Source of the DNA: a virus
Virus record (IMG/VR): IMGVR_UViG_3300027706_000261
Location: 1-40,896 of that record
Length of the DNA: 40,896 bases
Direction: 5' to 3' (one strand)
The notes below the pieces were generated by a model, which saw only the letters and a list, made by a program, of their open reading frames with translations, was not told the DNA's origin and ran no database searches. The stretch's first letter is position 1. The number at the start of each line of letters is the position of its first letter. Positions 6,561 through 28,688 of the stretch are shown here, in pieces. The translations under genes were made by a program, and so were the position numbers.

Positions 6561-6564
6561 CGGG

Positions 6565-9132
6565 ATGGAGGCTGACCGGCATGCAATCCGGCAGTTCCTC
6601 GAGCGCGTCCACGGTCCCGAGCCTACGGGCTGGCTCATCCTGTGGACGCGCCAGGATAAAGCGACCCGGGCGTTCAACTTGGGCGAGGAGGGCGCGCTCG
6701 ATCAGGCGGTCGAATACTGCGCCGCGAGGGCCTCCACCTTCGACGTGTACGCCGCCGTCGGCCTCCAGCACGAAAGGCCCGCCAACAGCAGTCGCGGAGC
6801 GGAGGCGGGCGTTTCCGTGCTTCCGGGCCTTTGGGCCGACGTCGATATCGCGGGTGCCGCGCACAAGGCCGAAGCATTGCCGCCAACCGAGCAGGATGCT
6901 CGGAGTCTCATCGATACCGCAGTCCTGGAGCCGAGCCTAGTTGTGCACAGCGGGTTCGGACTCCAGCCCTACTGGCTTTTCCGTGAGCCCTACCAGATTG
7001 AGAGCGAAGACGAACGGAAGCAGTTGAAGTCGCTCTCAACGCGATTCCAGTTGAACCTTAGGCTGCGCGCCAATGTGCGGGGCTGGACGATGGACTCGAC
7101 CGCGGACCTGTGCCGTGTGCTCCGGGTGCCCGGCACGTTCAACCACAAAGTCGATGGCGACATCCGGATGGTCACCGCCGAGTACGCCGATCATGCCTAC
7201 AACCTCGCTGACTTCGAAGACCTTCTCGGTGGCATTGAGGATCCGGGGGATGGCGAGCGTGTGACGCAGCCCCCGTTGGATCTGCCCGCGGCCAAACTGC
7301 CTCCGATCCTCGACGGCTGCGTCTGGATGCGTCATTGCCGCACCGACGCTGCCGCCCTTGCCGAGCCCGAGTGGTACCGGATGTTGACGGTGGTCGCCAG
7401 GTGCGAGGATGCAGAGCGGTGGGCGCATGAACTGAGCCAGGCCTATCCGAAATACTCCCGGCGAGAAACGCAGCGAAAACTGAAGCAGGCGTCCAGCGAC
7501 AAGGTGGCGCCGGTGACGTGCGCCTACGTGCAGTCGAACCTCAATGGCGGCCGCTTTTGCGCGGAGTGCCTGTTTCGCGGCAACGTGAATTCGCCCATCG
7601 CGATTGGCAGGATCGAGGGGTTTGAAGCCGCACCCGCACCCGAACCCCCGCCCGCGTCCGGCGATGATCCTCCGCCACCGGAACAACCGCAGCCCACCGA
7701 GGCCGCGGCAACGAAGATTGAAAAGTACACGGACCTGGGAAATGCGCGAAGGTTCGTCGCCCGCTATCGCGGCACTGTTTTGTATTGCGAGGCATGGGGC
7801 CGATGGTTTCACTGGGACACCGCGCGATGGGCCGAAGATGAGCGGCTCGAGGTCTTTGCCCGCGCCACCGATCTGATTCGCAGCTTGTATGCGGTCGCCA
7901 AGAAGATCAAGGACGAAGACGAGCGGAAAGCGTTCCTCAGCCACCTGATCAAGTCGGAATCGCACCGCTCGATTCACGCGATGGTCACGCTGGCGAAATC
8001 GGATCGCACCGTGGCGCGCCATCCCGATGATTTCGACAACAACCAGTGGCTGTGCGCGGTCAAGAACGGCACGCTCGATCTGCGGACCGGGCAGCTGCGA
8101 TCCCATGACCCGAAGGACATGATCACCAAGCTCGCCCCCGTCGTGTACGACCCTTCGGCGCGATGCCCGAACTGGCTGGAATTCCTGAACATGATCATGC
8201 TCGGCCGGAAAAGTCTGGTCGATTTTCTGAAGCGCGCCCTGGGGTCGAGCCTGACTGGAATCACCAGCGACAAGGCGATGTTCATTCTCTACGGGCCCGG
8301 TGGCGACAACGGCAAATCCACCATGGTCGAAGTCATGGAAATGCTTCTGGGGAACTACGCCCGGCGAACGCCGGTAGAGACGTTCCTCAAGAAGCGGGAG
8401 GGCAGCATTCCGAATGACATCGCCCGTCTCCGCGGCGCGCGGTTCGTTTGGGCCGCCGAAAACGATCGGGGCGTGCGGCTCGCCGAATCCCTGATCAAGG
8501 AAATGACGGGCGGCGACCGGATGGCCGCGCGCTTCCTGCACGGCGAGTTCTTCGAGTTCATGCCCACGTTCAAGATCTGGTTCGCGACGAATCATAAGCC
8601 CACGATTCGCGGCGACGCAGCCATCTGGCGGCGGCTGAAGCTCGTGCCCTTCGACTACACCATCCCCAAGGATCAGCAGAAGAAACGTCACGAGGTCATG
8701 GCGATGTTCCAGTCAGAACTGCCGGGCATTTTGAACTGGGCCATCGAAGGGTGCTTGGAGTGGCAGCGTGACGGGCTGGGCGTGCCGGAGGAAGTCATTA
8801 ACGCGACGCGGGAGTACGAGTCGGAACAGGATACGTTCTCGATGTTCCTGGAAGAGAAGTGTGTGCGCGCGCCGAATGCGCGGGTGCTTTCGCTGGCACT
8901 TTACCGCGAATACAAAACCTGGGCCGAGGAGCATGGGGAGACACCGGCCAGCCACAAAACCTTCGCGTCTCTGATGAGCGAACGGGGATTTGCAAAGTCG
9001 AAAACCATGAAGGGCGCCCTTTATTCCGGCGTCGGTCTTCGGACCGAAGACCACTACGATACGCCGAAGGCGGCGCAAACGACGCCGAGGCAAACACGCT
9101 TTGATCGTGACGATGACGGTGAGGAGGTTTGA
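6565..9132 (+). CDS. primase-helicase (AEP-type primase + D5/P4-type SF3 helicase)
   Basis: An 855-residue replication protein. The N-terminal third contains WADVDIAG (about 90-97), the DxD metal motif of archaeo-eukaryotic-type primases, and further on RVPGTFNHK, as in RepB-like prim-pol domains. A proline-rich linker (about 355-385) separates it from a D5_N-like region and a superfamily 3 helicase domain with Walker A GPGGDNGKST (about 577-586) and downstream WFATNHKPTIRGDAAIWRR, the P4/D5 sensor motif. It would prime and unwind DNA at the phage origin. The start is ATG 6565, with GAGGTGG about 10 bases upstream; an in-frame TTG at 6541 would lie inside the previous gene. The 189-base gap after it holds the repeat cluster. 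Confidence 0.93.
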   Translation: MEADRHAIRQFLERVHGPEPTGWLILWTRQDKATRAFNLGEEGALDQAVEYCAARASTFDVYAAVGLQHERPANSSRGAEAGVSVLPGLWADVDIAGAAHKAEALPPTEQDARSLIDTAVLEPSLVVHSGFGLQPYWLFREPYQIESEDERKQLKSLSTRFQLNLRLRANVRGWTMDSTADLCRVLRVPGTFNHKVDGDIRMVTAEYADHAYNLADFEDLLGGIEDPGDGERVTQPPLDLPAAKLPPILDGCVWMRHCRTDAAALAEPEWYRMLTVVARCEDAERWAHELSQAYPKYSRRETQRKLKQASSDKVAPVTCAYVQSNLNGGRFCAECLFRGNVNSPIAIGRIEGFEAAPAPEPPPASGDDPPPPEQPQPTEAAATKIEKYTDLGNARRFVARYRGTVLYCEAWGRWFHWDTARWAEDERLEVFARATDLIRSLYAVAKKIKDEDERKAFLSHLIKSESHRSIHAMVTLAKSDRTVARHPDDFDNNQWLCAVKNGTLDLRTGQLRSHDPKDMITKLAPVVYDPSARCPNWLEFLNMIMLGRKSLVDFLKRALGSSLTGITSDKAMFILYGPGGDNGKSTMVEVMEMLLGNYARRTPVETFLKKREGSIPNDIARLRGARFVWAAENDRGVRLAESLIKEMTGGDRMAARFLHGEFFEFMPTFKIWFATNHKPTIRGDAAIWRRLKLVPFDYTIPKDQQKKRHEVMAMFQSELPGILNWAIEGCLEWQRDGLGVPEEVINATREYESEQDTFSMFLEEKCVRAPNARVLSLALYREYKTWAEEHGETPASHKTFASLMSERGFAKSKTMKGALYSGVGLRTEDHYDTPKAAQTTPRQTRFDRDDDGEEV

Positions 9133-11279: not shown

Positions 11280-11543
11280 ATGATCGTTTCGTACTGGCGG
11301 CGGATCGCCGCACCGATCATCGCGCGAGTGCTTGAACAGACGGCTGGCCGGCCCGAAAGTGAGGTGCGCGCCGGCCTATTGGCGGCTTACCCGTTTGGGC
11401 CTCGCAAGCACCACCCGTACAGAATCTGGCGCGACGAGATCCGGATACAGACCGGCAAGCGTCGAATTCATTTGGTCACTCGAAAGTTGCAGGGTCGACC
11501 GCCCGCGCCTCCGGACCCGTTGCAGGGAGCACTGTTCCAGTGA
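11280..11543 (+). CDS. hypothetical phage protein
   Basis: An 87-residue basic protein containing SYWRRIAAPIIARVLEQTAG and AAYPFGPRKHHPYRIWRDEI, a pattern I recognise from small phage proteins of unknown function. The ATG at 11280 was chosen because the family-like part starts there; an in-frame GTG at 11196 would extend it across the preceding gene. It ends with a GTGA overlap into the first methyltransferase gene, so it may be co-expressed with it. Confidence 0.6.
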   Translation: MIVSYWRRIAAPIIARVLEQTAGRPESEVRAGLLAAYPFGPRKHHPYRIWRDEIRIQTGKRRIHLVTRKLQGRPPAPPDPLQGALFQ

Positions 11544-13063
11544 ATCTTGCGCCGCAGATGGCCAGCCGGATCGAACTCTGGCCAGTGGAGAAACTGATCC
11601 CGTATGCCCGCAACGCGCGTACGCATTCGGACGCACAGGTGGCGCAAATCGCGGCGAGCATCATGGCCTTTGGTTTCAACAACCCGATCCTGGTGGATAC
11701 CAACGCTGGAATCATCGCCGGCCACGGCCGCCTGCTCGCCGCGCGCAAGCTGCGGATGGAACATGTGCCGGTGGTCGTGTTGGATCACCTCACGGAAACG
11801 CAGAGGCGGGCCTACGTTTTGGCCGATAACAAGCTGGCCGAGCAGGCCGGCTGGGACGACGAGATGCTGCGGGGCGAGTTGGCCGACTTGAAGGACGCCG
11901 ATCTCGACCTTGAGGCGCTCGGGTTCAGCGAGGATGAGCTTCGAACGCTGCTGGCAGAGACGGAACCGGCACCCACCGGTACGCCAGAAGTGGAGGAAGA
12001 GATCCCCGAGGCGCCGGTCGAGCCGGTCACGCGCACCGGAGACGTCTGGCTGATTGGAAAGCATCGCCTGGTGTGCGGTGACTGCCGCGACTTCCGCGCA
12101 ATTGAGCGGAAGTTCGAGGGCGTGAAGGCGAACGTTGTTATCACCTCGCCACCCTACGCCACACAGCGCGAGTACGATCCCGCCAGTGGCTTCAAACCGG
12201 TACCACCGGAGGAGTACAGCGACTGGTTTCGGGACGTCGCCGCCAATATTGCCGCGATTCTTGCCGCTGATGGCTCGTACTTCCTCAACATCAAGGAACA
12301 TGCGGCCGATGGCGAGCGTGATCTGTACGTGAAGGACCTGGTCATCGCGCACCGGCGGCAGTGGGGCTGGCGATTCGTCGATGAGTTCTGCTGGCGCAAG
12401 ACCGATAACGGCGTGCCGGGTGGATGGGGCAATCGCTTCAAGAACGCCTGGGAGCCGGTGTTCCACTTTTGCAGGCAGCCAGAGATCAAGTTCCGGCCGC
12501 AGGCCGTCGGCCATGTCTCGGAAGACTGCTTTGACTACTCGCCGAACAACCCGAAATCGACCTCCGGAAGCGGCCTCCTGGGAACCGGGGCGCGCGGATC
12601 AGCGGCGGGCCAGCCGGGCGCGGCGGACGAGGATGGCAGATTCACCGGCATCGCGCGGCCGAGCAACGTTGTCGAAGTGAAGTCCGAGAGCAGCCAGGGC
12701 TCGCACTCCGCTCCCTTCCCGCGTACTCTGGTCGAGTTCTTTGTGAAGGCGTTTTCCGATGCCGGCGACATTGTCTTTGACCCGTTTCTCGGCAGTGGAA
12801 CCACGATGGCCGCCGCCCACGTGCTGGGCCGCGTCGGGTACGGCATTGAGATCAGCCCGGCGTATTGCGACGTGATCCTCCGGCGTATGGCCAACCTCGC
12901 CGGCGAAGAACCGGTGCTCGCCGAGAGCGGCGAGCAGATGGGCGCGGTCGCTGCCTCGCGCGGCGTGCCCATCGAGCAGGTCGACAACCCTCGCCTCCGC
13001 GACGCGCGCCGGATTCAGCATCACGGTCCCGCGCCGTTCTACGGGAGCCGCAAAGCTTCGTAA
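11540..13063 (+). CDS. ParB-domain DNA methyltransferase, predicted N4-cytosine type
   Basis: A 507-residue fusion. Residues 8-140 form a ParB-like domain (PYARNARTHSDAQVAQIAAS, GIIAGHGRLLAARKL). After a Pro/Glu linker (about 145-175) comes a class beta methyltransferase: catalytic motif IV TSPPY (202-206) precedes the SAM-binding DPFLGSGTT (414-422). SPPY is typical of N4-cytosine enzymes, although N6-adenine cannot be ruled out. The start is GTG 11540 in a GTGA overlap. No restriction enzyme is adjacent, so it is an orphan that may protect phage DNA or control transcription. It is paralogous in its first 130 residues to the product of 13950-15221. Confidence 0.9.
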   Translation: MNLAPQMASRIELWPVEKLIPYARNARTHSDAQVAQIAASIMAFGFNNPILVDTNAGIIAGHGRLLAARKLRMEHVPVVVLDHLTETQRRAYVLADNKLAEQAGWDDEMLRGELADLKDADLDLEALGFSEDELRTLLAETEPAPTGTPEVEEEIPEAPVEPVTRTGDVWLIGKHRLVCGDCRDFRAIERKFEGVKANVVITSPPYATQREYDPASGFKPVPPEEYSDWFRDVAANIAAILAADGSYFLNIKEHAADGERDLYVKDLVIAHRRQWGWRFVDEFCWRKTDNGVPGGWGNRFKNAWEPVFHFCRQPEIKFRPQAVGHVSEDCFDYSPNNPKSTSGSGLLGTGARGSAAGQPGAADEDGRFTGIARPSNVVEVKSESSQGSHSAPFPRTLVEFFVKAFSDAGDIVFDPFLGSGTTMAAAHVLGRVGYGIEISPAYCDVILRRMANLAGEEPVLAESGEQMGAVAASRGVPIEQVDNPRLRDARRIQHHGPAPFYGSRKAS

Positions 13064-13949: not shown

Positions 13950-15221
13950 ATGACGAACCTGCAGGTAGTTACGTGGCCGGTCGAGCGGCTGATCCCTTAC
14001 GCCCGCAATGCGCGCACCCACTCGGACGAGCAGGTTGCGCAGGTTGCAGCGTCGATCGCCGAGTTTGGGTTCGTCAACCCGATCCTGATCGGATCAGACG
14101 GCGTCATCATCGCCGGCCACGCCCGCCTGCTTGCAGCGCGGAAGCTCCGAATGACCGAGGTGCCCGTGGTCGTCCTCGGGCACCTCACCGAAACGCAACG
14201 CCGGGCGCTGGTGCTGGCCGATAACCGCCTGGCGCTCGACGCCGGGTGGGACGAGGAGATGTTGAAGGTGGAGTTGGAGTCGTTGCGAGAGGACGGCTTC
14301 GACCTCGACATCGTCGGCTTCACGGACGAGGAAATCGAAGACCTGCTGCGCGATCCCGATCAGGTCGTTGAAGGGAACACCGACGAGGATGCCGCGCCGG
14401 AGTTGCCGGAGACGGCCGTCACCATGCCCGGCGATGTGTGGGTGCTGGGCGAGCACCGGTTGCTCTGCGGCGACTCGACCCATATGGAAGCTGTCGAGAA
14501 GGTCCTGGCCGGCGGCCTCGCCGACGTGACCTTCACCGACCCTCCGTACAACGTGAACTACGGCGCGACCATGAAGGACAAGCTCCGCGGGAAGAAGCGG
14601 AAGATCGCCAATGACGATCTCGGCGCAGGCTTCGATCAGTTCCTGCGCGACGCCTGCGTCAACATGCTCGCCGTGACCAAGGGCGCCATCTACATCTGCA
14701 TGTCGTCGTCGGAGTTGCACACGCTGTACCGGGCGTTCACCGAGGCGGGCGGCCACTGGTCCACGTTCGTCATCTGGGCCAAGAACACGTTCACCATGGG
14801 GCGGTCGGATTACCAGCGGCAGTACGAACCGATGCTCTACGGGTGGAAGGAAGGCACGGACCACTTCTGGTGCGGCGCGCGGGACCAGGGCGACGTTTGG
14901 TTCATCAAGAAGCCGGTGGCCAACGATCTGCACCCCACGATGAAGCCTGTGGAGTTGGTGGACCGCGCGTTGCGCAACTCCAGCAAGAGCCGGGACACAG
15001 TGTTCGATCCGTTCGGCGGATCGGGTTCGACGCTGATCGCGTGCGAGCGGTCGGGCCGCCAGGCGCGGCTGATCGAGATGGAGCCGAAGTACTGCGATGT
15101 GATCATCCGGCGGTGGCAGGAATACTCGGGCAAGCAGGCTCAGCACGCCGAAAGCGGGCGCCCTTTCGCGGACGCGTGCCGGCCGGAACAGGAGGCTCAA
15201 TGCCAACTCCAGGAATCCTAG
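13950..15221 (+). CDS. ParB-domain DNA methyltransferase, predicted N6-adenine type
   Basis: A 423-residue fusion of a ParB-like domain (about 5-135; PYARNARTHSDEQVAQVAAS and GVIIAGHARLLAARKL) and a class beta methyltransferase with DPPY (197-200) before DPFGGSGST (353-361). DPPY indicates N6-adenine methylation. The N-terminal domain closely matches that of the enzyme at 11540, but the catalytic domains differ in motif and length, so either an ancient duplication or domain exchange is possible. The start is the ATG 9 bases after the preceding stop. It overlaps the next small gene by 22 bases. Confidence 0.92.
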   Translation: MTNLQVVTWPVERLIPYARNARTHSDEQVAQVAASIAEFGFVNPILIGSDGVIIAGHARLLAARKLRMTEVPVVVLGHLTETQRRALVLADNRLALDAGWDEEMLKVELESLREDGFDLDIVGFTDEEIEDLLRDPDQVVEGNTDEDAAPELPETAVTMPGDVWVLGEHRLLCGDSTHMEAVEKVLAGGLADVTFTDPPYNVNYGATMKDKLRGKKRKIANDDLGAGFDQFLRDACVNMLAVTKGAIYICMSSSELHTLYRAFTEAGGHWSTFVIWAKNTFTMGRSDYQRQYEPMLYGWKEGTDHFWCGARDQGDVWFIKKPVANDLHPTMKPVELVDRALRNSSKSRDTVFDPFGGSGSTLIACERSGRQARLIEMEPKYCDVIIRRWQEYSGKQAQHAESGRPFADACRPEQEAQCQLQES

Positions 15222-17098: not shown

Positions 17099-17641
17099 GT
17101 GCCCTTGGTGAGCATCCGCGGTTACGCCAAGCATCGGGGCGTGAGCCACACGGCTGTGGAGAAAGCCGTCAAACAGGGCCGGATTCGGATCGTGGACGGC
17201 AAGATCGACGTCGAACAGGCGGACCGCGATTGGAATCGCAACAGCAGTCCGGTGAACAAGCCGGAAACCGCGCCGCGCGCCGCCGCCTCTGTCGAACCGC
17301 TGGTTGCCGGGCCCAGCTTTGCGCAGTCACGCGCCGTACGGGAGGCCTACGAGGCGCGCCTGGCGAAGCTGACCTACGAAGAGCGCATCAAGAAGCTGAT
17401 CAACGCCGACGAGATGCGCGTGGCGGCTTACAACTTCTCGCGCATGATCCGCGACCGCGTGCTCGGCGTTCCGGATCGCGTGGTGGGCGCGGTGCTCGCC
17501 GAGATTCGTGCGGCGTTGGCAGCCGGTGGAGTGGACCTCGCATTGATCGATGGCCTGAACATGGCGAAGGTTCACGGCATCATGCTCGCGGAGATGCGAA
17601 ACATCCTGGAGGAGTTCGCCGATGAGCTCGGCCAGCGCTGA
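17099..17641 (+). CDS. terminase small-subunit-like protein
   Basis: A 180-residue protein. The N-terminus (SIRGYAKHRGVSHTAVEKAVKQGRI... GKIDVEQADRDW) is a clear winged HTH of the kind in Nu1-type small terminases, with the wing formed by the IRIVDGKIDV hairpin. The C-terminal two-thirds is helical (ARLAKLTYEERIKKLINADEM...), suited to oligomerisation and binding the large subunit. The start is GTG 17099 with GAGG 8 bases upstream; an earlier GTG at 17060 lacks one. It overlaps the large terminase by 20 bases. Its role, recognising the packaging site, follows from fold and position. Confidence 0.8.
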   Translation: MPLVSIRGYAKHRGVSHTAVEKAVKQGRIRIVDGKIDVEQADRDWNRNSSPVNKPETAPRAAASVEPLVAGPSFAQSRAVREAYEARLAKLTYEERIKKLINADEMRVAAYNFSRMIRDRVLGVPDRVVGAVLAEIRAALAAGGVDLALIDGLNMAKVHGIMLAEMRNILEEFADELGQR

Positions 17642-19523
17642 ACAGATCTACTTCGGCGCCGCCGCCGCGGGCGTCCGGCCGGATCCTCTGCTCACCATCT
17701 CGCAGTGGGCGGACAAGTACCGGAAGTTGTCGCAACGGGCGTCGGCAGAGCCGGGCCCTTGGCGCACGGATCGCACGCCATACCTGCGCGAAATCATGGA
17801 TTGCCTCTCGCCGTCATCGCCCATCGAACGCGTAGTGTTCATGAAGGGCGCGCAGATCGGCGGCACAGAGTGCGGCAACAACTGGATCGGCTACGTCGTG
17901 CACCAAGCGCCGGGACCGATGATGGCCGTGCAGCCCACAGTCGAGATGGCCAAGCGCAACTCGAAGCAGCGCGTCGATCCGCTGATCGAGGAATCGGACG
18001 TGCTGCGCGACCTGGTGCAGAGTCCGCGTTCGCGAGACTCCGGGAACACGATTCTCTCGAAGGAGTTCCCTGGCGGTGTGCTGGTGATGACAGGCGCGAA
18101 CTCGGCGGTCGGCCTGCGCTCGATGGCGGCGCGCTTCCTCTTTCTCGACGAGGTGGACGCCTACCCGGGCGACGTCGAGGGCGAAGGCGATCCGGTCAAC
18201 CTGGCCATGGCCCGCACGCGCACGTTTGCGCGCCGCAAGGTGTTTCTATGCTCCACGCCGAAGATCACCGGCATGAGCCGGGTCGAGGCGGCCTTCGAGG
18301 AGAGCGACCAGCGACGCTACTGGGTTCCGTGCCCGCACTGCCGCGAGTTTCAGGTTCTGAAGTTCGCGCAGCTCCGGTGGCCGAAGGGCGAACCAGAGAA
18401 GGCCGTCTACGTTTGCGAGCACTGTCGGGAGGAGATTCAGAATCACCAGAAGCAATGGATGCTTCCGCGTGGGCAATGGCGTGCCGCAGCCGCCGGTGAC
18501 GGGCGCACGGCGGGCTTCCACCTGTCGAGCCTCTACTCGCCGGTAGGCTGGTTTTCCTGGGGTGATGCGGCCAAGCAGTTCGAGCAGGCACAGAAGAATC
18601 CGGCACTGCTTCAGGTCTTCGTCAACACGGTCCAGGGCGAGACGTGGACGCTGCTCGGCGAAGCTCCCGAGTGGCAGAAGCTGTATGACCGGCGGGAGGG
18701 TTATCGAATCGGCGTTGTGCCAACTGGTGGCTTGTTCCTGACGGCGGGTGCGGACATTCAAAAGGACCGCATCGAGGTGGAGATTGCCGCGTGGGGCCGT
18801 GTGAAGGAATCCTGGTCAGTCGATTACCGCGTGTTCGAAGGCGACACTTCACGCCCGGCGGTGTGGGAGAAGCTCACGGGCCTGCTGAACGAAACATTCA
18901 CGACTGCATCTGGTTTGGAGTTGCCCATCTTGCAGCTCGCCGTCGATTCGGGATTCGCCACCACGGAGGTCTACCAGTGGGCCCGGCGACAGGGCGGCCG
19001 CGTGCTGGTAATCAAAGGCGACTCGCGCGCACCGGCCCTACTGGGTGCGGCGTCGCCCGTGGATGTGGGCCCGCTGGGCGCCAGGATCAAACGCGGGATT
19101 CGCGTGTGGCCAGTGAACTCCGGCATGGCGAAGGAGGAACTGTACCGCTGGCTGCGCCTGGAGCGCCCCACCGACGAGGATCTCGAAGAAGGCGTCCCCT
19201 TCCCGGCTGGCTACTGCCACTTTCCGAAGTACAGCGACGAGTACTTCAAGCAGATCACTGCTGAGCAGCTCGTCACGAAGCTGGTGAAGGGCTACCGACG
19301 GCACGAGTGGCAGAAGATGCGCGAGCGCAATGAAGCCCTCGATTGCCGCGTCTACGCCCGCGCCGCGGCGGGTCGGATCGGAATTGATCGTTTTCAGGAG
19401 AAGCACTGGGCGGAGTTGGAGCGGCGCGTGGCGGCGTCGCCCGTGAAAGAACCAAGGCCACAGGCGCAGCGGACGCCGGTGACGCAGCCGCGCAACCAGG
19501 TTCGGTTCAAGGTGGAGATCTAA
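17622..19523 (+). CDS. terminase large subunit, GpA family
   Basis: A 633-residue packaging motor of the lambda gpA type. It carries the family's ATPase signature MKGAQIGGTE (74-83; the P-loop-like Q/GxGKT variant), Walker B LFLDEVDAYPGD with D176 and E177, and LCSTPKITGMSR as the coupling motif. The C-terminal nuclease half includes TAGADIQKDRIEVEIAAWG, where the Asp residues bind metal. The length matches gpA. It cuts and translocates DNA into proheads through the portal encoded downstream. Confidence 0.95.
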   Translation: MSSASAEQIYFGAAAAGVRPDPLLTISQWADKYRKLSQRASAEPGPWRTDRTPYLREIMDCLSPSSPIERVVFMKGAQIGGTECGNNWIGYVVHQAPGPMMAVQPTVEMAKRNSKQRVDPLIEESDVLRDLVQSPRSRDSGNTILSKEFPGGVLVMTGANSAVGLRSMAARFLFLDEVDAYPGDVEGEGDPVNLAMARTRTFARRKVFLCSTPKITGMSRVEAAFEESDQRRYWVPCPHCREFQVLKFAQLRWPKGEPEKAVYVCEHCREEIQNHQKQWMLPRGQWRAAAAGDGRTAGFHLSSLYSPVGWFSWGDAAKQFEQAQKNPALLQVFVNTVQGETWTLLGEAPEWQKLYDRREGYRIGVVPTGGLFLTAGADIQKDRIEVEIAAWGRVKESWSVDYRVFEGDTSRPAVWEKLTGLLNETFTTASGLELPILQLAVDSGFATTEVYQWARRQGGRVLVIKGDSRAPALLGAASPVDVGPLGARIKRGIRVWPVNSGMAKEELYRWLRLERPTDEDLEEGVPFPAGYCHFPKYSDEYFKQITAEQLVTKLVKGYRRHEWQKMRERNEALDCRVYARAAAGRIGIDRFQEKHWAELERRVAASPVKEPRPQAQRTPVTQPRNQVRFKVEI

Positions 19524-19742: not shown

Positions 19743-21344
19743 GTGCCTATCGAGACGCTGATGTCGCTGGCCCGCGCCGCTGGCCACGAGCCACCGTCCG
19801 TGCCGCGCGTGCCGCGTGGCACGCGGAGCATGGGAACCACGCCGTTCGACGCCGCCGGCAAAGGAAGGCGTGGGTACGGCTGGAACCCGAGCTATCTCGG
19901 TCTCAACACGCTCCTGTTCTCGCACGGGCTGGAGCTGCTGACACGGAACCGCGACGCGATCCGAAACAGCGCGTGGGCGGCCGGAGCTGTGGATTCGTAT
20001 GTGGCCAACGCGATCGGACGCGGCATTCGGTTGATCCCGCAGCACCTGGACGAACAGGTTCGCGAATTGATCCGGCAAAAGTGGGCGCGATGGATTCGGG
20101 AATCGGATGTCGAATACGACCCGCGGAATCCGGCGTCAGGGCAGACGGACTTCTATGGCCAGCAGATGATCATCGCCCGCGAGGTGATGGAGGCCGGCGA
20201 ATGCTTCGTACGCTTCCGGCCGCGATCGCCGAAGGAAGGGCTTTCCGTCCCGATTCAGTTGCAGTTGATCGAGGCCGAACAGCTACCACTGTGGCGCAAC
20301 CAGCCGACGCAGGATGTGCCGGAGGCGAATCGCGTGCGGTGCGGAGTCGAGTTCCGGCCGGACGGCCGCCGCGCCGCGTACCACTTCTGGCGCGCGCACC
20401 CGGGCGAGACGATGTTCTACCCGCTCGAGTCGTTGCAGGTGGAGCGCGTGCCGGCGAGCGACGTCCTGCACGTGTACAAACCGATCCGCGCCGGTCAGTT
20501 CCGCGGCCAGCCCTGGCTCACCACGGTGCTGGCCAAGCTCTACGAGTTGGAGCAGTACACGGATGCCGAGATCGTCCGCAAGAAGATCTCGGCGATGATC
20601 ACCGGCTTCATCAAGCAGGTGAGTCCGGACAACCCGGTGATGGCCCCGGATCAGACTTCGACCGGGCAGAGCCAGGCCGACCCGGGCACACAAATCTCCA
20701 AGCTGGAGCCGGGCACCTTCCCGGTGCTGGGCTTCGGCGAAGAGGTGCAGTTCGCGGAGGTCAAGGACAGCGGAGATTACAAGGCGTTCGTGCGGGCGTG
20801 TCTGCAGGCGTTCGCGAGCGGCGCCGGTCTGGCGGAATACCAGATCAGTGGGGACCTCTCCGGGATCAACTACTCGTCGATCCGCGCGGGCCTGCTGGAG
20901 TTTCGCCGCAAGTGCGAGCAGTTCCAGTATTCGGTCTTCATCTATCAGGTCTGCCATCCGATCTATCGCCGCTGGCTGCGGGAGGCAATGCTCGCGATGG
21001 TGTTCGGGGTCGAGTTGCTGAACGCCTACGACAACGATCCCGCGCCGTTTGAAGAGGCGCAGTGGGTAACGCCGGGCTGGCCGTGGGTCGATCCGGAGAA
21101 GGACATGAAGGCTGCCGAGCGTGCCATCCGGGATGGCCTGTCGACTCGCTCAATCGAGTGTGCGGCGCAAGGGTACGACGCGACGGTGATCGATGCCGAG
21201 CAGAAGGCTGACAACGACCGGGCGGATCGGCTTGGCCTCTCGTATGACTCCGACGGCCGGAAGATCCTCACGGGACGGAACGCCGGGATGACGGAGGAAG
21301 AAGTGGAGAAAGACGCCGCAAGCGGAAAGGTGGAAGTTCAGTGA
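19743..21344 (+). CDS. portal protein, lambda gpB family
   Basis: A 533-residue portal protein. It shows family features such as LNTLLFSHGLELLTRNRDAIRNSAWAAG near the N-terminus, an RPDGRRAAYHFWRAHPGE stretch, VLHVYKPIRAGQFRGQPWL, and GDLSGINYSSIRAGLLEFRR. It forms the dodecameric DNA channel at the capsid vertex. The annotated start is GTG 19743; ATG 19761 is a plausible alternative. Its stop overlaps the protease start (GTGA), as in lambda B-C. Confidence 0.95.
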   Translation: MPIETLMSLARAAGHEPPSVPRVPRGTRSMGTTPFDAAGKGRRGYGWNPSYLGLNTLLFSHGLELLTRNRDAIRNSAWAAGAVDSYVANAIGRGIRLIPQHLDEQVRELIRQKWARWIRESDVEYDPRNPASGQTDFYGQQMIIAREVMEAGECFVRFRPRSPKEGLSVPIQLQLIEAEQLPLWRNQPTQDVPEANRVRCGVEFRPDGRRAAYHFWRAHPGETMFYPLESLQVERVPASDVLHVYKPIRAGQFRGQPWLTTVLAKLYELEQYTDAEIVRKKISAMITGFIKQVSPDNPVMAPDQTSTGQSQADPGTQISKLEPGTFPVLGFGEEVQFAEVKDSGDYKAFVRACLQAFASGAGLAEYQISGDLSGINYSSIRAGLLEFRRKCEQFQYSVFIYQVCHPIYRRWLREAMLAMVFGVELLNAYDNDPAPFEEAQWVTPGWPWVDPEKDMKAAERAIRDGLSTRSIECAAQGYDATVIDAEQKADNDRADRLGLSYDSDGRKILTGRNAGMTEEEVEKDAASGKVEVQ

Positions 21345-22882
21345 CGCTGACTCACGTCGCATCACGGTTCGTGAACTGCCCGCTGATGATTCACCCGCCC
21401 AAGTTGGAAGTGATCATCAAGGCACTCGGGCCGCGTCTGGGGATAGACCCCGACGCCGTGCTCGCACGACGCGTGCCGATGGATGCAACTGCCACTCTGA
21501 TGGCGCGCTACTCGGACGCCGGTGACGAACGGGACTACGCCGTGCTGGATGGCGTGGCCGTGGTCCCCGTGCAAGGGACTCTGCTCAAGAAGGAATCGTT
21601 CCTGTCCGCGTGGAGCGGCGCCAGTTCCTACGAACAGATTCAACGCCAGGTGGCGCGGGCGGTGGACGATGCCAGCGTGCGCGCCATTCTGCTGGATATC
21701 GATTCACCGGGCGGCGAGACGACCGGCTGTTTCGAACTTGCCGACTACATCTACTCGATCCGCGGTGTGAAGCCGGTGTATGCCGCCGCGAATGACATCG
21801 CCCTGTCGGCCGCCTATGCGATCGCGAGTTCGGCCAGCAAGGTGTTCGTGACGCGGACCGGCGCCGTCGGATCGATCGGCGTATACGCGCTGCACGTGGA
21901 TCAGTCGGAGTTCGACAAGGAAATCGGCGCAAAGTACACGTTCATTTTCGCCGGCGACAAGAAGGTCGACGGCAACCCGCACGAACCGCTGGGCGAGAGC
22001 GCCAGGGGCGACATCCAGGCGGAGGTGGATCGCGAGTACGCGATCTTTGTCGAAACGGTAGCGCGGAATCGCAAGGCGAGCACCAAGGCGATTGTAGGGA
22101 CGCAGGCGGGTTTGCTGTGGGCCGAAAACGCGTTGCCGCTACTGGCTGACCAGGTCGGCACGCTCGAGGACGCGCTGACCCAACTACAAACGCAAACCGG
22201 TTCGCGAACGCGGGCCGCAATCTCAACCCGAGGAGAACACATGACAGAAGATCCCCAGGCCCTCGCCGCGAAAAGGGAATGCGACGAAAAGGCTGACGAC
22301 AAAAAGTCGAAGAAAGACGACGCGAAGGAGCGCGAGGGCAAGAAGCCTCCCGCGGATGACGACGAGGACGATGACAAGGAAGAAGCGAAATCCAAAAAGG
22401 CCGCCGCCACCGTCCTGCCCATCTCCGGCGAACCGTTGAAGGGTATGCGGGCCGAAACCGACATTCAGGCCATCGCGGCGCTCTGCAAGATGGCCGGTTG
22501 CCCGGAAAAGGCCGCCGAGTTCCTGATGCTGAAGAACCCGCGCGGCGAATACATGAGCGTCGCGGAGGTCAGCGAGGCTCTGACCAGTTCCCGCGTCGCG
22601 GAAAGCGAGAAACGCATGATCAGTTCGCACGTGAATCCGAACGCCGGTTCCGGCGGCGTGCAGGAATTAGAGGCTCAGGCAGTCTCTTTGGCGCGGCAGA
22701 ACCGTGGCCAGGTGACCAACGGCCTGTACGTCTCCGGTACTGCCACGCGGGTGACCAAGGAGCGCGCCTACGCGCAGATGCTCGAAGAACACCCCGAGGC
22801 GTATGCGGCGTTCCGCGCGCAGCACAACGCCAAGGGCCTGATCGCCACGCTGGAGGCGGCGGGCGTCCGCCTGGCGCGGTAA
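21341..22882 (+). CDS. S49-family head maturation protease with scaffold domain (gpC-like)
   Basis: A 513-residue protein. The protease part (about 60-270) has the ClpP/SppA crotonase fold pattern: ILLDIDSPGGETTG for the oxyanion-hole strand, TGAVGSIG with catalytic Ser178, and FAGDKKVDGNPHE with Lys207 or Lys208 as the likely general base. After residue 300 comes a very charged Lys/Asp/Glu region (about 310-355) and a helical tail, the scaffold domain. As in lambda gpC/Nu3, the scaffold is also likely made separately from the internal start at 22241. It processes the prohead and is then lost. Confidence 0.93.
   Translation: MTLTHVASRFVNCPLMIHPPKLEVIIKALGPRLGIDPDAVLARRVPMDATATLMARYSDAGDERDYAVLDGVAVVPVQGTLLKKESFLSAWSGASSYEQIQRQVARAVDDASVRAILLDIDSPGGETTGCFELADYIYSIRGVKPVYAAANDIALSAAYAIASSASKVFVTRTGAVGSIGVYALHVDQSEFDKEIGAKYTFIFAGDKKVDGNPHEPLGESARGDIQAEVDREYAIFVETVARNRKASTKAIVGTQAGLLWAENALPLLADQVGTLEDALTQLQTQTGSRTRAAISTRGEHMTEDPQALAAKRECDEKADDKKSKKDDAKEREGKKPPADDDEDDDKEEAKSKKAAATVLPISGEPLKGMRAETDIQAIAALCKMAGCPEKAAEFLMLKNPRGEYMSVAEVSEALTSSRVAESEKRMISSHVNPNAGSGGVQELEAQAVSLARQNRGQVTNGLYVSGTATRVTKERAYAQMLEEHPEAYAAFRAQHNAKGLIATLEAAGVRLAR
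22241..22882 (+). CDS. nested capsid scaffold (Nu3-like), in-frame internal start
   Basis: A strong internal ribosome-binding site, GAGGAGAACAC, precedes an in-frame ATG (MTEDPQALAA) at codon 301 of the protease gene. Translation from here gives a 213-residue protein equal to the gpC C-terminus: a highly charged, helical protein suited to scaffolding. Lambda encodes its Nu3 scaffold in the same way. The ribosome-binding site and phase are seen; expression is inferred. Confidence 0.75.
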   Translation: MTEDPQALAAKRECDEKADDKKSKKDDAKEREGKKPPADDDEDDDKEEAKSKKAAATVLPISGEPLKGMRAETDIQAIAALCKMAGCPEKAAEFLMLKNPRGEYMSVAEVSEALTSSRVAESEKRMISSHVNPNAGSGGVQELEAQAVSLARQNRGQVTNGLYVSGTATRVTKERAYAQMLEEHPEAYAAFRAQHNAKGLIATLEAAGVRLAR

Positions 22883-23310: not shown

Positions 23311-24315
23311 ATGCCTCAACCGACTTTGGGCGATGTCCATGTGAACCGCCCGCTGACGAACATTTCCGTGGCGTACAGCCAGGAGGCGGCCGGCGTGGAG
23401 TTCGTCGCCGACCGCGCATTCCCTGGGATTCCCGTCGAAAGCAAAAGCGACCTGTACTACACCTACAAGCGCGCCGACTTCAACCGCGACGAAATGCAGA
23501 AGCGCGCGCTCGCGACCGAGTCCGCTGGCACGGGCTACGGGCTGGATTCCACCGGCACGTATAACTGCGACGTGTGGGCGCTGCACAAAGACGTGGACGA
23601 CCAGATCCGCGCCAACAGCGATTCGCCGCTCGCGCCCGACCGCGACGCCACCATCTTCCTCACCAACAAAGCGCTCATCCGGCGCGAGAGCCAGTGGGTG
23701 TCGCAGTACTTCAAGACCGGGATCTGGACCGGCGAAGTGGCCGGCCAGGCGACTGCCGACAGCACCCACGTAACCTACTGGGATTACGCGACCGCGCAGC
23801 CGATCGTGGACATCCGCCACGCGAAAACGCAAGCGCGCCTGAACTCTGGCGGCTTCGTGCCGAACATCGCGGTGTTCTCGCGCCCGGTATTCGACAAGCT
23901 GGTCGATCACCCTGATTTCATCGACCGCACCAAGTACGGCCAGACTGCCCCGAACCCGGCGATGGCCACGCGGCGCATCATGGCCGAAATCCTCGAACTG
24001 GAAGAGGTCCTGGTTGTGGATGCGGTCTACAACACCGCAGCTGAAGGCGCCACCGAGTCCAACGCCTTCATCGGAGGGCTTTCCGCGGCACTCTTCTACC
24101 GCCCTCGGAATCCCGGCCTGATGACGCCGAGTGCCGGGTACACCTTCAACTGGACCGGCCTGATCGGGTCCACCGGCGGCGCGGGCGTGCGGATCAAAAC
24201 GTTCCGCATGGAGCACCTGGCTTCGGACCGCGTCGAGATCGATGCCGCTTTCGACATGCGTGTGGTGTCGAAGGATTGCGGCTTCTTCTTCAACAACGTC
24301 ATCACGGCGGTGTAA
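23311..24315 (+). CDS. major capsid protein
   Basis: A 334-residue protein (MPQPTLGDVHVNRPL...), preceded by AAAAGGAG at a good distance. Its length, position right after decoration and scaffold genes, and mixed alpha/beta composition with an RRESQWVSQYFKTGIWTG region agree with an HK97-fold shell protein of the lambda gpE type. The exact subfamily is not recognised; nothing else in the head module could be the shell protein. Confidence 0.8.
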   Translation: MPQPTLGDVHVNRPLTNISVAYSQEAAGVEFVADRAFPGIPVESKSDLYYTYKRADFNRDEMQKRALATESAGTGYGLDSTGTYNCDVWALHKDVDDQIRANSDSPLAPDRDATIFLTNKALIRRESQWVSQYFKTGIWTGEVAGQATADSTHVTYWDYATAQPIVDIRHAKTQARLNSGGFVPNIAVFSRPVFDKLVDHPDFIDRTKYGQTAPNPAMATRRIMAEILELEEVLVVDAVYNTAAEGATESNAFIGGLSAALFYRPRNPGLMTPSAGYTFNWTGLIGSTGGAGVRIKTFRMEHLASDRVEIDAAFDMRVVSKDCGFFFNNVITAV

Positions 24316-25244: not shown

Positions 25245-25562
25245 ATGGCCTGGTCGGATCTCGTTAACACGCTGGACGCGGCCTGCCTCGCCACCTTTGG
25301 GACGCCGGTCACGTTCACTCCGCAGGATGGCTCCGGCGCTCAGCAACTCAGCGGCATCATCCAGCGTCCTGCGATCGCCGAAGATTACGTGCCGGGCAGT
25401 GTCCAGGGTACGTCGGTGATCCGTCTCTTCGTGCGCTTCGCCGCCATCACGCCGTCGCCGCGGCATGGCGACACGATCACGATCAACTCGATTGTTTACG
25501 ATGTGGTCGACGTGAATGTGGATGCGGAGGGCGGCGCGGTCCTGAAGCTGAGAGTCACGTAG
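25245..25562 (+). CDS. head-tail joining protein (gpFII-like)
   Basis: A 105-residue protein. The beta-rich body with HGDTITINSIVYDVVDVNVDAEG and LKLRV resembles the lambda gpFII/ATPase-inhibitor head-tail joiner family. The length fits gpFII. The ribosome-binding site is weak (GGAT). Assignment is by size, beta pattern and position. Confidence 0.7.
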   Translation: MAWSDLVNTLDAACLATFGTPVTFTPQDGSGAQQLSGIIQRPAIAEDYVPGSVQGTSVIRLFVRFAAITPSPRHGDTITINSIVYDVVDVNVDAEGGAVLKLRVT

Positions 25563-26027: not shown

Positions 26028-26176
26028 TGGACGAACAAGAGAATACGCCAGCACGGGATACCGTGCGGCTTCGGCACCCGCACACAGGGGACATCCAGGA
26101 AGTGGAAGCCACGCCGGAGAAACTCGTGCCGTTGATGGGCCTGGGCTATGTGCAGGTCAGGGAGGTAGATGAGTAA
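26027..26176 (+). CDS. 49-residue small tail-module protein
   Basis: A 49-residue frame (MDEQENTPARDTVRLRHPHT...GYVQVREVDE) joined to its neighbours by TGATG at the start and TAATG at the end, so it is almost certainly translated by coupling. It is short and charged, with a beta-like TVRLRHPHTGDIQEV stretch. The tail-tube gene follows directly. Function is unknown. Confidence 0.7.
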   Translation: MDEQENTPARDTVRLRHPHTGDIQEVEATPEKLVPLMGLGYVQVREVDE

Positions 26177-27189
26177 TGCCCGCGAGAGTACAGCAGTTAA
26201 TCATGGGCCTTGGCAAAGGCAAGCAGACGAACATCTCGACCGCCGGGACGACGTTCTTGCGCTTCAAGAAGCTCGACACCAGCCTGACGACACCGAAGCC
26301 GGTGTTCGAAAACGACGCCGCCGAAATCGGTAAAGGTCACGAGTTCATCACGCAGACCTTTCCTTCCCACTACGAGGTGGCGAATCGTCTGGAGAAGTAC
26401 GCAAGCGCCGAGTTCGTCACGTGGGCCGTTGCATTTGCCCTCGGCAACATCGCGCAGACCGGCTCGTCGGCCCCGTACACCTACACGATCACGCCCATCA
26501 ATCCGGGCGTCACGCTCGAACTGCCGTACTTCTCGCTAGTCGAGCAGGTGGCCGAGGGCGGCGGCAACGCCATCGACAACCTGTATGTCGGTTGCGCCAT
26601 CGAGGATTTCACCTACCAGTTCAACTTCGGTCCTGGCCGCGCGTCTTCGAAGATGACCGTGAACTGGGTCGGTTCCGGCCTGCTGACAACGCCGAGCGGC
26701 ATCACCGTCCCGGCGCTCACCACCGAGAACAACATGCTGGCGGCTTCGATGTCGCTGTCGGTGAACGGCGTCGATTACGTCTCGACGAAGCGGATTCTGT
26801 CCGGGTCGGTCGGCTGGAAGAACAACCTGCTGCTGAATGCGGGCTTCTATCCCGGCTCCGGTCTGCAGAACGGCCTTCAGGTGCGCGGCCGCATGGAGAT
26901 CGGCGCCCGCGTGCCGTCGTTCCAGTTCACCGCACGGCTGCTCGCCGGATCGCCCGAGTACACCACGCTGGTCAATCAGACCACCGGGACCGCGACTCTC
27001 AGCGTGCAGCACGACGCCAACAATTCGGTGAGCTTCAGCTTCCCGCAGATGGCGTTCCAGGTGGCCGAGAACGCCGAAGCCGACGGCATTGTAGCGGTGA
27101 CGGTCACTGGCGCGCCGCAGTACAGCAACTCGCAGAACACCGTGATGTCCGTAACGACGCTGTGCGGCGTCACGGGCATCGCTCAATAG
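26176..27189 (+). CDS. major tail tube protein
   Basis: A 337-residue beta-rich protein with a repetitive Thr/Ser/Val composition, including GFYPGSGLQNGLQVRGRMEIG and TTGTATLSVQHDANNSVSF. Length, composition and position before the tail-assembly chaperones point to the tail-tube protein, as lambda gpV. The start is the ATG of the TAATG junction. Confidence 0.85.
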   Translation: MPARVQQLIMGLGKGKQTNISTAGTTFLRFKKLDTSLTTPKPVFENDAAEIGKGHEFITQTFPSHYEVANRLEKYASAEFVTWAVAFALGNIAQTGSSAPYTYTITPINPGVTLELPYFSLVEQVAEGGGNAIDNLYVGCAIEDFTYQFNFGPGRASSKMTVNWVGSGLLTTPSGITVPALTTENNMLAASMSLSVNGVDYVSTKRILSGSVGWKNNLLLNAGFYPGSGLQNGLQVRGRMEIGARVPSFQFTARLLAGSPEYTTLVNQTTGTATLSVQHDANNSVSFSFPQMAFQVAENAEADGIVAVTVTGAPQYSNSQNTVMSVTTLCGVTGIAQ

Positions 27190-27197
27190 GAGGAACC

Positions 27198-27812
27198 ATG
27201 TACGGAGATATCCCAGTTGAGGGCATCACCATTCGCGTGCCCAATCCGCCGAAGACCGCTTTCCTGCGGTTGCCCACCAACCAGGAGATGCTGGAACGGC
27301 TGGACCAGCAGAGGTCCATTCGGCGCACCATCGGCCGCCGCAAGTCGCAGACGGAGTTCGTGCCCAACCTCAAGGCCGATCTGGACCTATTCAATAAGAT
27401 CCGGCTCGACAAAGACGGCGCGGAGTTTGACGAGTTCGAGGCCGGCAACGCCATCTCGAAGCTCTCCTTCTGCGAAGTGACCGACTGCCAGCGTGCCGGC
27501 GACGAGTACCGGATCGCCCTCCGGACGCCCTTCGGCGAAACAATCCACCAGGTGAAGATCCCGATGCAGCGCGACATCACCGTCTATCGGCGGACTGTCG
27601 TGTCGTCGACCGATCTTCCGCACGGTCAGGAGGAACTGCGGTATCGCATCGAACCAGCCGTCGGCCTGTACGACTCGGTGGTGACCAAGGTCGAAGGATA
27701 CGCCGCGTCGATTAAGCCCGCCGACGTGCCTCCCCACCACAAATCGTCGGTCGTTGTGGAACTGGTCCAGGCCATCGACGATCTCGACCCGGCGCTCGAC
27801 CCAAACTCTTAG
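27198..27812 (+). CDS. tail assembly chaperone, short (G-like) product
   Basis: A 204-residue protein (MYGDIPVEGITIRVPNPPK...) with AGGAGGA before the ATG. It has the charged helical composition of lambda gpG-type chaperones (RSIRRTIGRRKSQTEFVPNL...) and lies between tail-tube and tape-measure modules. Its final codons carry the slippery heptamer CCCAAAC, so most ribosomes should end at TAG 27810 while some shift to make the longer fusion. Confidence 0.8.
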   Translation: MYGDIPVEGITIRVPNPPKTAFLRLPTNQEMLERLDQQRSIRRTIGRRKSQTEFVPNLKADLDLFNKIRLDKDGAEFDEFEAGNAISKLSFCEVTDCQRAGDEYRIALRTPFGETIHQVKIPMQRDITVYRRTVVSSTDLPHGQEELRYRIEPAVGLYDSVVTKVEGYAASIKPADVPPHHKSSVVVELVQAIDDLDPALDPNS

Positions 27813-28261
27813 CACCGGACGAGTGGCCCACGCCGGTCCCTCTCCGGTTGCTGATCTTCCGGTCGGTGCGCGCGGCCGAGTTGTGCGATGGCGGCGCTGA
27901 CGGTCCGCGCGGCTGCCCTGACGCCAATGACGTCAGGTGCGGCAAGTGCGGCCTGGCGCGCACCGTGGACGACACCAACGCTCCTGGTGCCTGCCCGCAG
28001 TGCGGTGGCTGGCAGTTCACTGTCAGCCGCTGCGCCCACTGCAAGCTCGACGATCTCGACTACGCGCGGACCCACTCCAATGCCGGCCGCCTCTTTGAGC
28101 GGCTGCTGGAACTGGAGTTCGACGCGGCCCACTTCAGCATTCCCTGGAGCGACGTGACCGCGGAGGAGGTGCGCGGGCTCCAGATTCTCAAGGAAGAGCG
28201 CAACCGCTACCAGCGGGAGCAGATGCAGAAACAACCCCATGCCTTTCCATGCCCGAGTTAG
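27198..28261 (+). CDS. tail assembly chaperone, frameshift fusion (GT-like)
   Basis: A -1 shift at 27800-27806 moves translation from the G-like frame to the frame ending at 28261. The product would have 203 G residues plus 151 from the second frame, 354 in all. The new part starts LLAPDEWPTPVPLRLL and contains a zinc-ribbon-like array CGKCG, CPQCGGW and CAHC, then a helical acidic C-terminus (LKEERNRYQREQMQKQ). Meaningful sequence continues upstream of the first in-frame start (TTG 27848) back to the heptamer, which favours fusion over separate translation. In lambda-type phages the GT protein and excess G assemble the tape measure and tail tube. Confidence 0.75.
27800..27837 (+). promoter_or_regulatory. 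-1 ribosomal frameshift signal
   Basis: The heptamer CCCAAAC (27800-27806) is in the required phase, C-CCA-AAC, 3 bases before the TAG at 27810. Seven bases later a hairpin begins: ACCGG (27814-27818) pairs with CCGGT (27833-27837), and the loop itself can form GTGG/CCAC. Heptamer, phase, spacing and structure all fit the classical signal. Confidence 0.8.
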
Positions 28262-28688
28262 CCGCGCCCGCTTCGTGCTTGGGCCGTTCACAGCCGAGGA
28301 CATGCAGACCATCGGCGGCGTCCTGGTGGACAGCATCTCTACGCGCATCCGGAAGGCCCTCAACGTGAACGACGCTCCGGCGAAAGCCCTGAAGCCGGGT
28401 CGCAACGGGCGGCGAGGGTACCCGGATTACAAAATCGCACGTGGCCTGATGCCGATCCGCGACTGGATTTGGACAGGGCGCACCCTGCGGTCGCTCAAAG
28501 TGAAGAGCGCGAACGAGAATCAAGCCGTGCTCGGGTTCGTCGATCCCACTGTGGATCGCGTCGCGCATGTGAACAATCTGCGCGAGAAACAGTTCGGGGT
28601 CTCGCCCAAAGACCGGAGCGCGCTCAACGCGGCAGTCCTGGCTGTGCTCCGGCAGGCGCGGGCCATTCGCGTAAAGAGAGCGGCATAA
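28239..28688 (+). CDS. phage morphogenesis-like minor tail protein
   Basis: A 149-residue basic protein overlapping the chaperone frame by 23 bases. RNGRRGYPDYKIARGL, RDWIWTGRTLRSLKV and REKQFGVSPKDRSALNAAV form a pattern of tail-completion or virion-morphogenesis proteins. An extra gene at this point, between chaperone and tape measure, is not the lambda order. Function is inferred from pattern and position. Confidence 0.65.
   Translation: MPFHARVSRARFVLGPFTAEDMQTIGGVLVDSISTRIRKALNVNDAPAKALKPGRNGRRGYPDYKIARGLMPIRDWIWTGRTLRSLKVKSANENQAVLGFVDPTVDRVAHVNNLREKQFGVSPKDRSALNAAVLAVLRQARAIRVKRAA

What the first reader, a model, noticed from the sequence alone, without database searches (positions are those of the whole stretch)
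27198..28261. Canonical -1 frameshift signal fusing a zinc-ribbon-like T domain to the tail chaperone
Seen: CCCAAAC in the correct phase 3 bases before the TAG of the G-like gene, a hairpin 7 bases downstream, and coherent protein sequence in the -1 frame from the heptamer onward. Known: lambda-type phages make G and GT this way. Unusual here: the T part carries three CxxC groups, not typical of lambda T, and an AAC-ended A-site codon is not the common GGGAAAG or AAAAAAG choice in phages.
Basis: partly seen in the sequence, partly recalled or inferred. Interest (0 to 1): 0.75.

Follow-up and report, generated by a model that had tools for sequence, protein, structure and literature searches.

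The report
Zinc-ribbon tail chaperone via -1 frameshift
A soil phage of acidobacteria appears to make two versions of a tail-building helper protein by letting some ribosomes slip back one base at a fixed seven-base signal, and more than a hundred related phages keep a slip signal at the same spot even when its letters change.

Summary
In the window the 0-frame gene (27198-27812) ends GAC CCA AAC TCT TAG. C_CCA_AAC (27800-27806) is in phase, and an 8-bp stem with one bulge starts 8 nt later. The -1 frame codes for a 151-residue T domain. In 42 distinct relatives of this clade C_CCA_AAC is kept 42/42. In seven of them the T frame opens exactly at the heptamer, and in one the 0-frame stop follows it directly, so the shift must lie inside it. 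T is under coding selection upstream of any shared start codon. RNA folding exceeds synonymous randomisation only just downstream of the heptamer. A more distant group keeps an in-phase heptamer in 62/63 junctions (44 C_CCA_AAC, 18 A_AAT_TTY), against 0.09% of other codon pairs. A sister clade uses CCCGGAA. T carries eight conserved cysteines, fitting two zinc sites; the distant group lacks the inner CxxC-CxxC ribbon. Hosts are Acidobacteriota. This is the lambda G/GT strategy on an unrelated-looking protein pair: a new variant of a known kind. Frameshifting, its efficiency, zinc binding and chaperone function are not measured.

The parts
27198..27812 (+). G-like 0-frame gene, 204 aa (putative tail assembly chaperone), own SD AGGAGG upstream
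27800..27806 (+). slippery heptamer C_CCA_AAC, in phase, one codon before the 0-frame stop
   Evidence: kept in 42/42 distinct junctions of this clade; CCA is 8% of Pro codons elsewhere in G
27810..27812 (+). 0-frame stop TAG of G
27815..27823 (+). 5' arm of the downstream stem, CCGGA(c)GAG; C27820 is a bulge that falls on a wobble position
27840..27847 (+). 3' arm of the stem, CTCTCCGG, with strongly restricted synonymous codons (CCT CTC CGG)
27806..28261 (+). T domain in the -1 frame, 151 aa, made as GT fusion of 354 aa
27884..28042 (+). zinc-binding part of T: outer ligands C27, C37, C76, C79 and inner ribbon C45, C48, C63, C66
28689..32339 (+). putative tape measure gene downstream (1216 aa), the expected partner of G/GT
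   Evidence: NCBIfam RcGTA_tape E 1.1e-5, below curated cut-off
26176..27189 (+). gene directly upstream of G (337 aa), position of the major tail protein; identity inferred from order only
   Evidence: no convincing family match

Best explanation
Most ribosomes translate gene G to its TAG and make the short chaperone (204 aa). A minority, paused by the hairpin that starts 8 nt downstream, slip back one base with tRNA-Pro on CCA (to CCC) and tRNA-Asn on AAC (to AAA). They continue in the -1 frame and append the T domain, giving a 354-aa GT fusion. By analogy with lambda, G coats the tape measure protein and the T part recruits the tail tube protein; GT is needed in small amount, which suits a heptamer that E. 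coli rules predict to be weak. T is built around a four-ligand zinc site (C27, C37, C76, C79), and in this clade an additional CxxC-CxxC zinc ribbon sits between its second and third ligands. Shown here: the signal, its phase, its conservation, coding selection in the T frame, the local RNA folding signal, the conserved Cys. Inferred: that frameshifting occurs and its level, zinc binding, tail-assembly role.
For: Heptamer 42/42 in distinct relatives although CCA is 8% of other Pro codons. T frame opens exactly at the heptamer in seven loci (L015, L023, L024, L025, L036, L041, L042) and L101 has its 0-frame stop directly after AAC, so a shared mechanism must act within the seven bases. T-frame pN/pS is 0.37 for codons 3-14, upstream of any widely shared start, against 1.5 and 3.3 in the other frames. 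No conserved start; L034, L044 and L100 have no ATG/GTG/TTG within 210 nt. Folding is more stable than synonymous randomisation only at +6..+51 (mean z -1.85), and again in the ribbon-less group (-1.94). Homologues with 31-40% identical T keep C_CCA_AAC or use A_AAT_TTY, A_AAA_AAC or CCCGGAA at the same place. Gene order puts G/T just before a putative tape measure gene in a lambda-type siphophage module (GpA terminase, lambda portal, S49 protease).
Against: No direct product evidence. AAC-ended heptamers are inefficient in E. coli (PMC4066793). Stem covariation is modest (3 pairs with double changes, 39/500 shuffles as high) and a few relatives (L041, L099) show little folding excess. G and T show no similarity to lambda G/T, and G's predicted fold has no clear PDB match, so the chaperone role is by position only.
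Confidence: 0.93

Rival explanations
1. T is a separate gene started by its own ribosome-binding site or by termination-reinitiation after G stops.
For: A GTG/TTG is present in the T frame in many loci (window TTG 27848, GTG 27866); G stop and T overlap, as in coupled genes. In the sister clade an AUA or AUG overlaps the stop (GGAATAG, GGAATGA), so reinitiation is not excluded there.
Against: In this clade no start codon is shared, several loci lack any near one, no SD precedes the window TTG, and coding selection reaches back to the heptamer, upstream of the candidate starts. Reinitiation does not explain 42/42 CCA AAC.
Confidence: 0.03
2. The frame change is a disabling mutation or a sequencing error.
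For: The window is an assembled metagenome record; two sister-clade records (L104, L176) do show ordinary frame errors inside T.
Against: The same frame change at the same base occurs in 42 distinct junctions of this clade and in two other groups, with purifying selection on both sides.
Confidence: 0.005
3. Frame change by transcriptional slippage, not ribosomal.
For: Some bacterial frame changes arise so, at long A or T runs (general knowledge; PMC5009743 reviews them).
Against: CCCAAAC has no homopolymer beyond three bases; slippage by RNA polymerase would not need codon phase or a downstream hairpin.
Confidence: 0.01
4. Frameshifted fusion is real but the pair is not a tail assembly chaperone (for example a zinc-dependent tail or neck component, or a regulator).
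For: No sequence or clear fold match of G to known chaperones; T zinc ribbon resembles ribosomal and RNA-polymerase ribbons.
Against: Position between the presumed tail tube gene and a tape measure-like gene in a lambda-type module, the G/GT overlap architecture itself, and weak BFVD structure matches to 'tape measure chaperone' proteins and Mu FS-gp41.
Confidence: 0.1

Closest known systems
Phage lambda G/GT tail assembly chaperones (-1 frameshift; reviewed in PMC5009743)
   Same: Gene order (tail tube, G, T, tape measure), 0-frame short product and -1 fusion, heptamer next to the 0-frame stop
   Different: No detectable sequence similarity; heptamer C_CCA_AAC, not lambda's G_GGA_AAG; T has eight Cys and zinc-ribbon profile matches; one extra gene (28239-28688) between T and the tape measure gene
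[quoted passage not shown] PMC5009743) and Acinetobacter phage Loki (AAAAAAC; PMC5313236)
   Same: AAC-ended heptamers at a tail chaperone
   Different: Different X triplet; Loki is a prediction; no zinc domain in the chaperone mentioned in the passages read
C_CC.A_AA.G in E. coli reporter and IS studies (PMC4066793)
   Same: Same first six bases; the most efficient family in E. coli (up to 54% with a strong pseudoknot)
   Different: Last base C instead of G, which E. coli data class as low efficiency
PRFect 'threetwotwo' motif CCCGGAA in actinobacteriophages (PMC10885494)
   Same: Same heptamer as the sister clade found here (66 of 71 distinct junctions), explained there by G:U re-pairing
   Different: There a hypothesis from annotation; here it occupies the place of C_CCA_AAC in homologous genes of another phylum's phages
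Zinc ribbons (Pfam Zn_ribbon_6, RUBY_RBDX, Zn_ribbon_LapB)
   Same: CxxC-x14-CxxC knuckles and profile matches in T homologues
   Different: Set within the -1 frame domain of a frameshift product, nested inside a second Cys site

Membership tests
Programmed -1 ribosomal frameshift signal | X_XXY_YYZ heptamer in the 0-frame phase near the 0-frame stop | tested here: met
Programmed -1 ribosomal frameshift signal | Downstream stimulatory structure a few bases from the heptamer | tested here: met
   Stem at 8 nt; folding excess over synonymous randomisation confined to this place, synonymous constraint; covariation alone is weak
Programmed -1 ribosomal frameshift signal | -1 frame under coding selection from the heptamer on, no independent start | tested here: met
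Programmed -1 ribosomal frameshift signal | Fusion product observed | not testable with these tools
   needs mass spectrometry or a reporter
Lambda-type G/GT tail assembly chaperone | Lies between major tail protein and tape measure genes | tested here: inconclusive
   Tape measure supported weakly (E 1.1e-5, 25 bits against a cut-off of 220); upstream gene has no family match
Lambda-type G/GT tail assembly chaperone | Sequence similarity to lambda G or T | tested here: inconclusive
   None detected by hhalign against the single lambda sequences; such chaperones are known to diverge beyond sequence recognition
Lambda-type G/GT tail assembly chaperone | Fold of known tail chaperones | tested here: inconclusive
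   Model pLDDT 86; no PDB match with E <= 0.001, VIA Z at most 4.0; weak BFVD hits to Mu FS-gp41 and 'tape measure chaperone' entries
Lambda-type G/GT tail assembly chaperone | Excess of G over GT, binding to tape measure and tube proteins | not testable with these tools
   needs expression and binding assays
Zinc ribbon | Two CxxC knuckles with conserved Cys | tested here: met
   C45, C48, C63, C66 invariant in 29 T sequences (L030 has a one-residue gap within the second knuckle)
Zinc ribbon | Profile match to zinc-ribbon families | tested here: met
   Over 29 members: RUBY_RBDX best 2.6e-5, Zn_ribbon_LapB 1.9e-4, Zn_ribbon_6 9.5e-4; the window protein alone reaches only E 0.008 (HypA), below the curated cut-off
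Zinc ribbon | Bound zinc | not testable with these tools
   needs metal analysis

The most novel reading that the evidence does not exclude
An old tail-chaperone family of Acidobacteriota phages keeps programmed frameshifting while swapping its slippery heptamer (C_CCA_AAC, A_AAT_TTY, A_AAA_AAC, C_CCG_GAA) and its hairpin, and uses heptamers that E. coli rules rate weak or would not recognise. If so, frameshift rules drawn from E. coli do not hold unchanged in this phylum, or the phages tune GT to a low level by choice of the last base. T is a zinc protein in which a second zinc module was gained or lost.
Probability: 0.6. Interest if true: 0.6.

Novelty: new variant of a known kind. Interest (0 to 1): 0.5.

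Why it matters
Frameshifted G/GT chaperones are known mostly from phages of well-studied bacteria. Here is a well-sampled family from uncultured acidobacterial phages with over 150 distinct junctions, in which the place of the slip is fixed while its letters changed several times. It is a natural experiment on which heptamers work and can replace one another. It gives comparative support to CCCGGAA as a real slippery site, and it suggests a metal-binding T domain, which would give a structural handle on the less understood half of GT.

Tried and rejected
Rfam (0 hits) and tRNA scan (0). Relatives of G or T among 50,697 GenBank phages: none. RNAalifold consensus on the 37-row alignment gave little covariation, so I relied on synonymous-codon randomisation instead. 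Foldseek and VIA-align searches of the G and T models gave no clear PDB match; I draw no conclusion from that beyond 'not recognised'. BFVD's best G match, A0A6M2VCE7 (E 1.5e-3), has no name. Full-text searches for CCCAAAC with frameshift, and for zinc ribbon or zinc finger with tail assembly chaperone, turned up no paper whose title or listed abstract describes such a T domain; most subscription papers, including Xu et al. 2004, are not held, so earlier mention is possible. The polarity of the ribbon (gain or loss) could not be settled: the tree is only midpoint-rooted and has long branches.

Full report
What is there. The window is an IMG/VR virus record, 62.9% G+C, with a lambda-type head and tail module: GpA terminase 17622-19523, lambda-type portal 19743-21344, S49 protease 21341-22882, capsid protein 23311-24315, head closure Hc1 25245-25562, a 337-aa gene at the tail-tube position, then G, T, a 149-aa gene and a 1216-aa tape-measure-like protein (NCBIfam RcGTA_tape, E 1.1e-5). 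G runs 27198-27812 behind AGGAGG. Its last codons are GAC CCA AAC TCT TAG, so C_CCA_AAC at 27800-27806 is in the tandem-slippage phase. The -1 frame from 27806 is open to 28261 and codes for 151 residues.

Is it more than chance? The heptamer as a string is not rare. Comparison decides. Forty-six relatives of G were found in IMG/VR, 24 and later 47 of T, and seven in bacterial genome assemblies. Of 53 junctions that could be read, 42 are distinct; all 42 keep C_CCA_AAC. CCA makes up 8% of the other Pro codons in these genes (of 575), AAC 68% of Asn and GAC 65% of Asp. The sequences are related, so these are not independent draws, but G identity to the window falls to about 50% and T to about 42-48% without one exception.

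The shift is inside the heptamer. In seven loci a stop codon in the -1 frame ends at the base before CCC, so T cannot be entered earlier. In L101 the 0-frame stop follows AAC directly, so it cannot be entered later. If the mechanism is shared, it acts on these seven bases.

T is translated from there. For T codons 3-14, upstream of the first start codon that many loci share, pN/pS is 0.37 in the T frame and 1.5 and 3.3 in the other two; 16 of 39 sequences have stops in the last of these. No ATG, GTG or TTG is shared by all, and three loci have none within 210 nt.

The hairpin. In the window CCGGA(c)GAG (27815-27823) pairs with CTCTCCGG (27840-27847), 8 nt after the heptamer; the bulged base falls on a wobble position. 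The 3' arm shows strong synonymous constraint: Pro CCT 34 of 37 (background 17%), Arg CGG 35 of 38 (29%), Leu CTC 35 of 37 (36%). Against randomisation of synonymous codons the 45-nt window starting at the heptamer's last base has mean z -1.85 over 42 sequences, while the other 26 windows along T lie between +0.43 and -0.91. Covariation is modest. By eye, L015, L016, L042 and L099 have other hairpins at the same place.

Deeper relatives. A profile search of 396 Acidobacteriota genomes found T relatives that lack the inner CxxC-CxxC. Their kin in IMG/VR gave 63 distinct junctions: 44 C_CCA_AAC, 16 A_AAT_TTT, 2 A_AAT_TTC and one imperfect A AGT TTT; L273 has A_AAA_AAC and L272 and L274 A_AAT_TTT. 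All are followed by a stop at once or after one codon. Elsewhere in the same G genes an in-phase X_XXY_YYZ occurs in 18 of 19,433 codon pairs. The local folding excess recurs (mean z -1.94). A third group (125 relatives found by G, 80 kept) ends GAC CCG GAA TAG: CCCGGAA in 66 of 71 distinct junctions and CTCGGAA or ATCGGAA in five, with GAA in 71 of 71 against 22.5% of other Glu codons. PRFect's authors name CCCGGAA as the commonest form of a hypothetical motif that can re-pair through G:U (PMC10885494). In this group an AUA or AUG overlaps the stop, so reinitiation is not excluded. A tree of T places A_AAT_TTY inside the C_CCA_AAC part of the ribbon-less group and CCCGGAA in one clade, so heptamers have been exchanged while the place stayed.

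The zinc question. In the window's clade C27, C37, C45, C48, C63, C66 and C79 are invariant and C76 nearly so. Pfam zinc-ribbon models match individual members (RUBY_RBDX 2.6e-5, Zn_ribbon_LapB 1.9e-4, 'double zinc ribbon' Zn_ribbon_6 9.5e-4). The ribbon-less group keeps the equivalents of C27, C37, C76 and C79 only. The CCCGGAA group has H-x3-C where the window has C76-x2-C79; a Cys-to-His exchange is what a zinc ligand tolerates. I therefore read T as a core with one zinc site plus a nested ribbon. Zinc was not measured, and the predicted model (pLDDT 82) gave only weak matches, among them ribosomal zinc ribbons covering residues 31-83.

Function. The G/GT architecture next to a tape measure gene is that of lambda, where G binds the tape measure and T recruits the tube protein (PMC5009743). 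Sequence gives no link to lambda, and G's model shows only weak resemblance to Mu FS-gp41 and to proteins named tape measure chaperone. The role is inferred, at about 0.85.

The AAC A site. In E. [quoted passage not shown] AAC-ended sites are reported for haloarchaeal viruses (PMC5009743) and predicted for phage Loki (PMC5313236). A weak heptamer with a strong hairpin could suit a low GT level. This is inference.

Hosts. Genome relatives lie in Solibacteraceae and Bryobacterales assemblies; one Solibacteraceae assembly holds six T loci on different contigs. These are metagenome bins, so the host link is likely, not proven. Acidobacteriota proviruses specific to Bryobacterales are described (PMC11924767), without mention of frameshifting.

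Verdict. The observation and the main interpretation stand. The kind is known. The variant is new as far as the held literature shows: an unrecognised protein pair, a probably zinc-binding T, an invariant AAC-ended heptamer in this clade and heptamer replacement between clades.

Noticed in passing
L078, L047, L102-L180 (sister clade): G ends GAC CCG GAA TAG/TAA/TGA with T in the -1 frame; CCCGGAA in 66 of 71 distinct junctions, and an AUA or AUG overlaps the stop. Slippage by G:U re-pairing and reinitiation are both possible.
   Followed up: partly
L272, L273, L274, L276-L355: Related G/T pairs whose T lacks the inner zinc ribbon and keeps only one four-Cys site; heptamers C_CCA_AAC, A_AAT_TTY, A_AAA_AAC.
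   Followed up: yes
L016 junction (about 3603-3660): Insertion of 18 codons between the heptamer and the T domain that itself can form a long hairpin at the usual distance.
   Followed up: no
window 11540-13063 and 13950-15221: Two neighbouring genes each join a ParB N-terminal domain to an N6/N4 DNA methylase domain.
   Followed up: no
window 3000-4400 and 6541-9132: SNF2-type helicase and a D5_N primase-helicase-like protein.
   Followed up: no
genome G001 (Solibacteraceae bin; L072, L075, L076, L270, L271, L274): Six T loci of all three groups on different contigs, suggesting several related prophages in one host or a mixed bin.
   Followed up: partly
IMGVR_UViG_3300048503_000180 (L124, L151): One 85.6-kb record carries two different sister-clade G/T loci.
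   Followed up: no
L104, L176, L077: Broken reading frames in T (L104, L176) or G with an ambiguous base (L077), most simply assembly errors.
   Followed up: no
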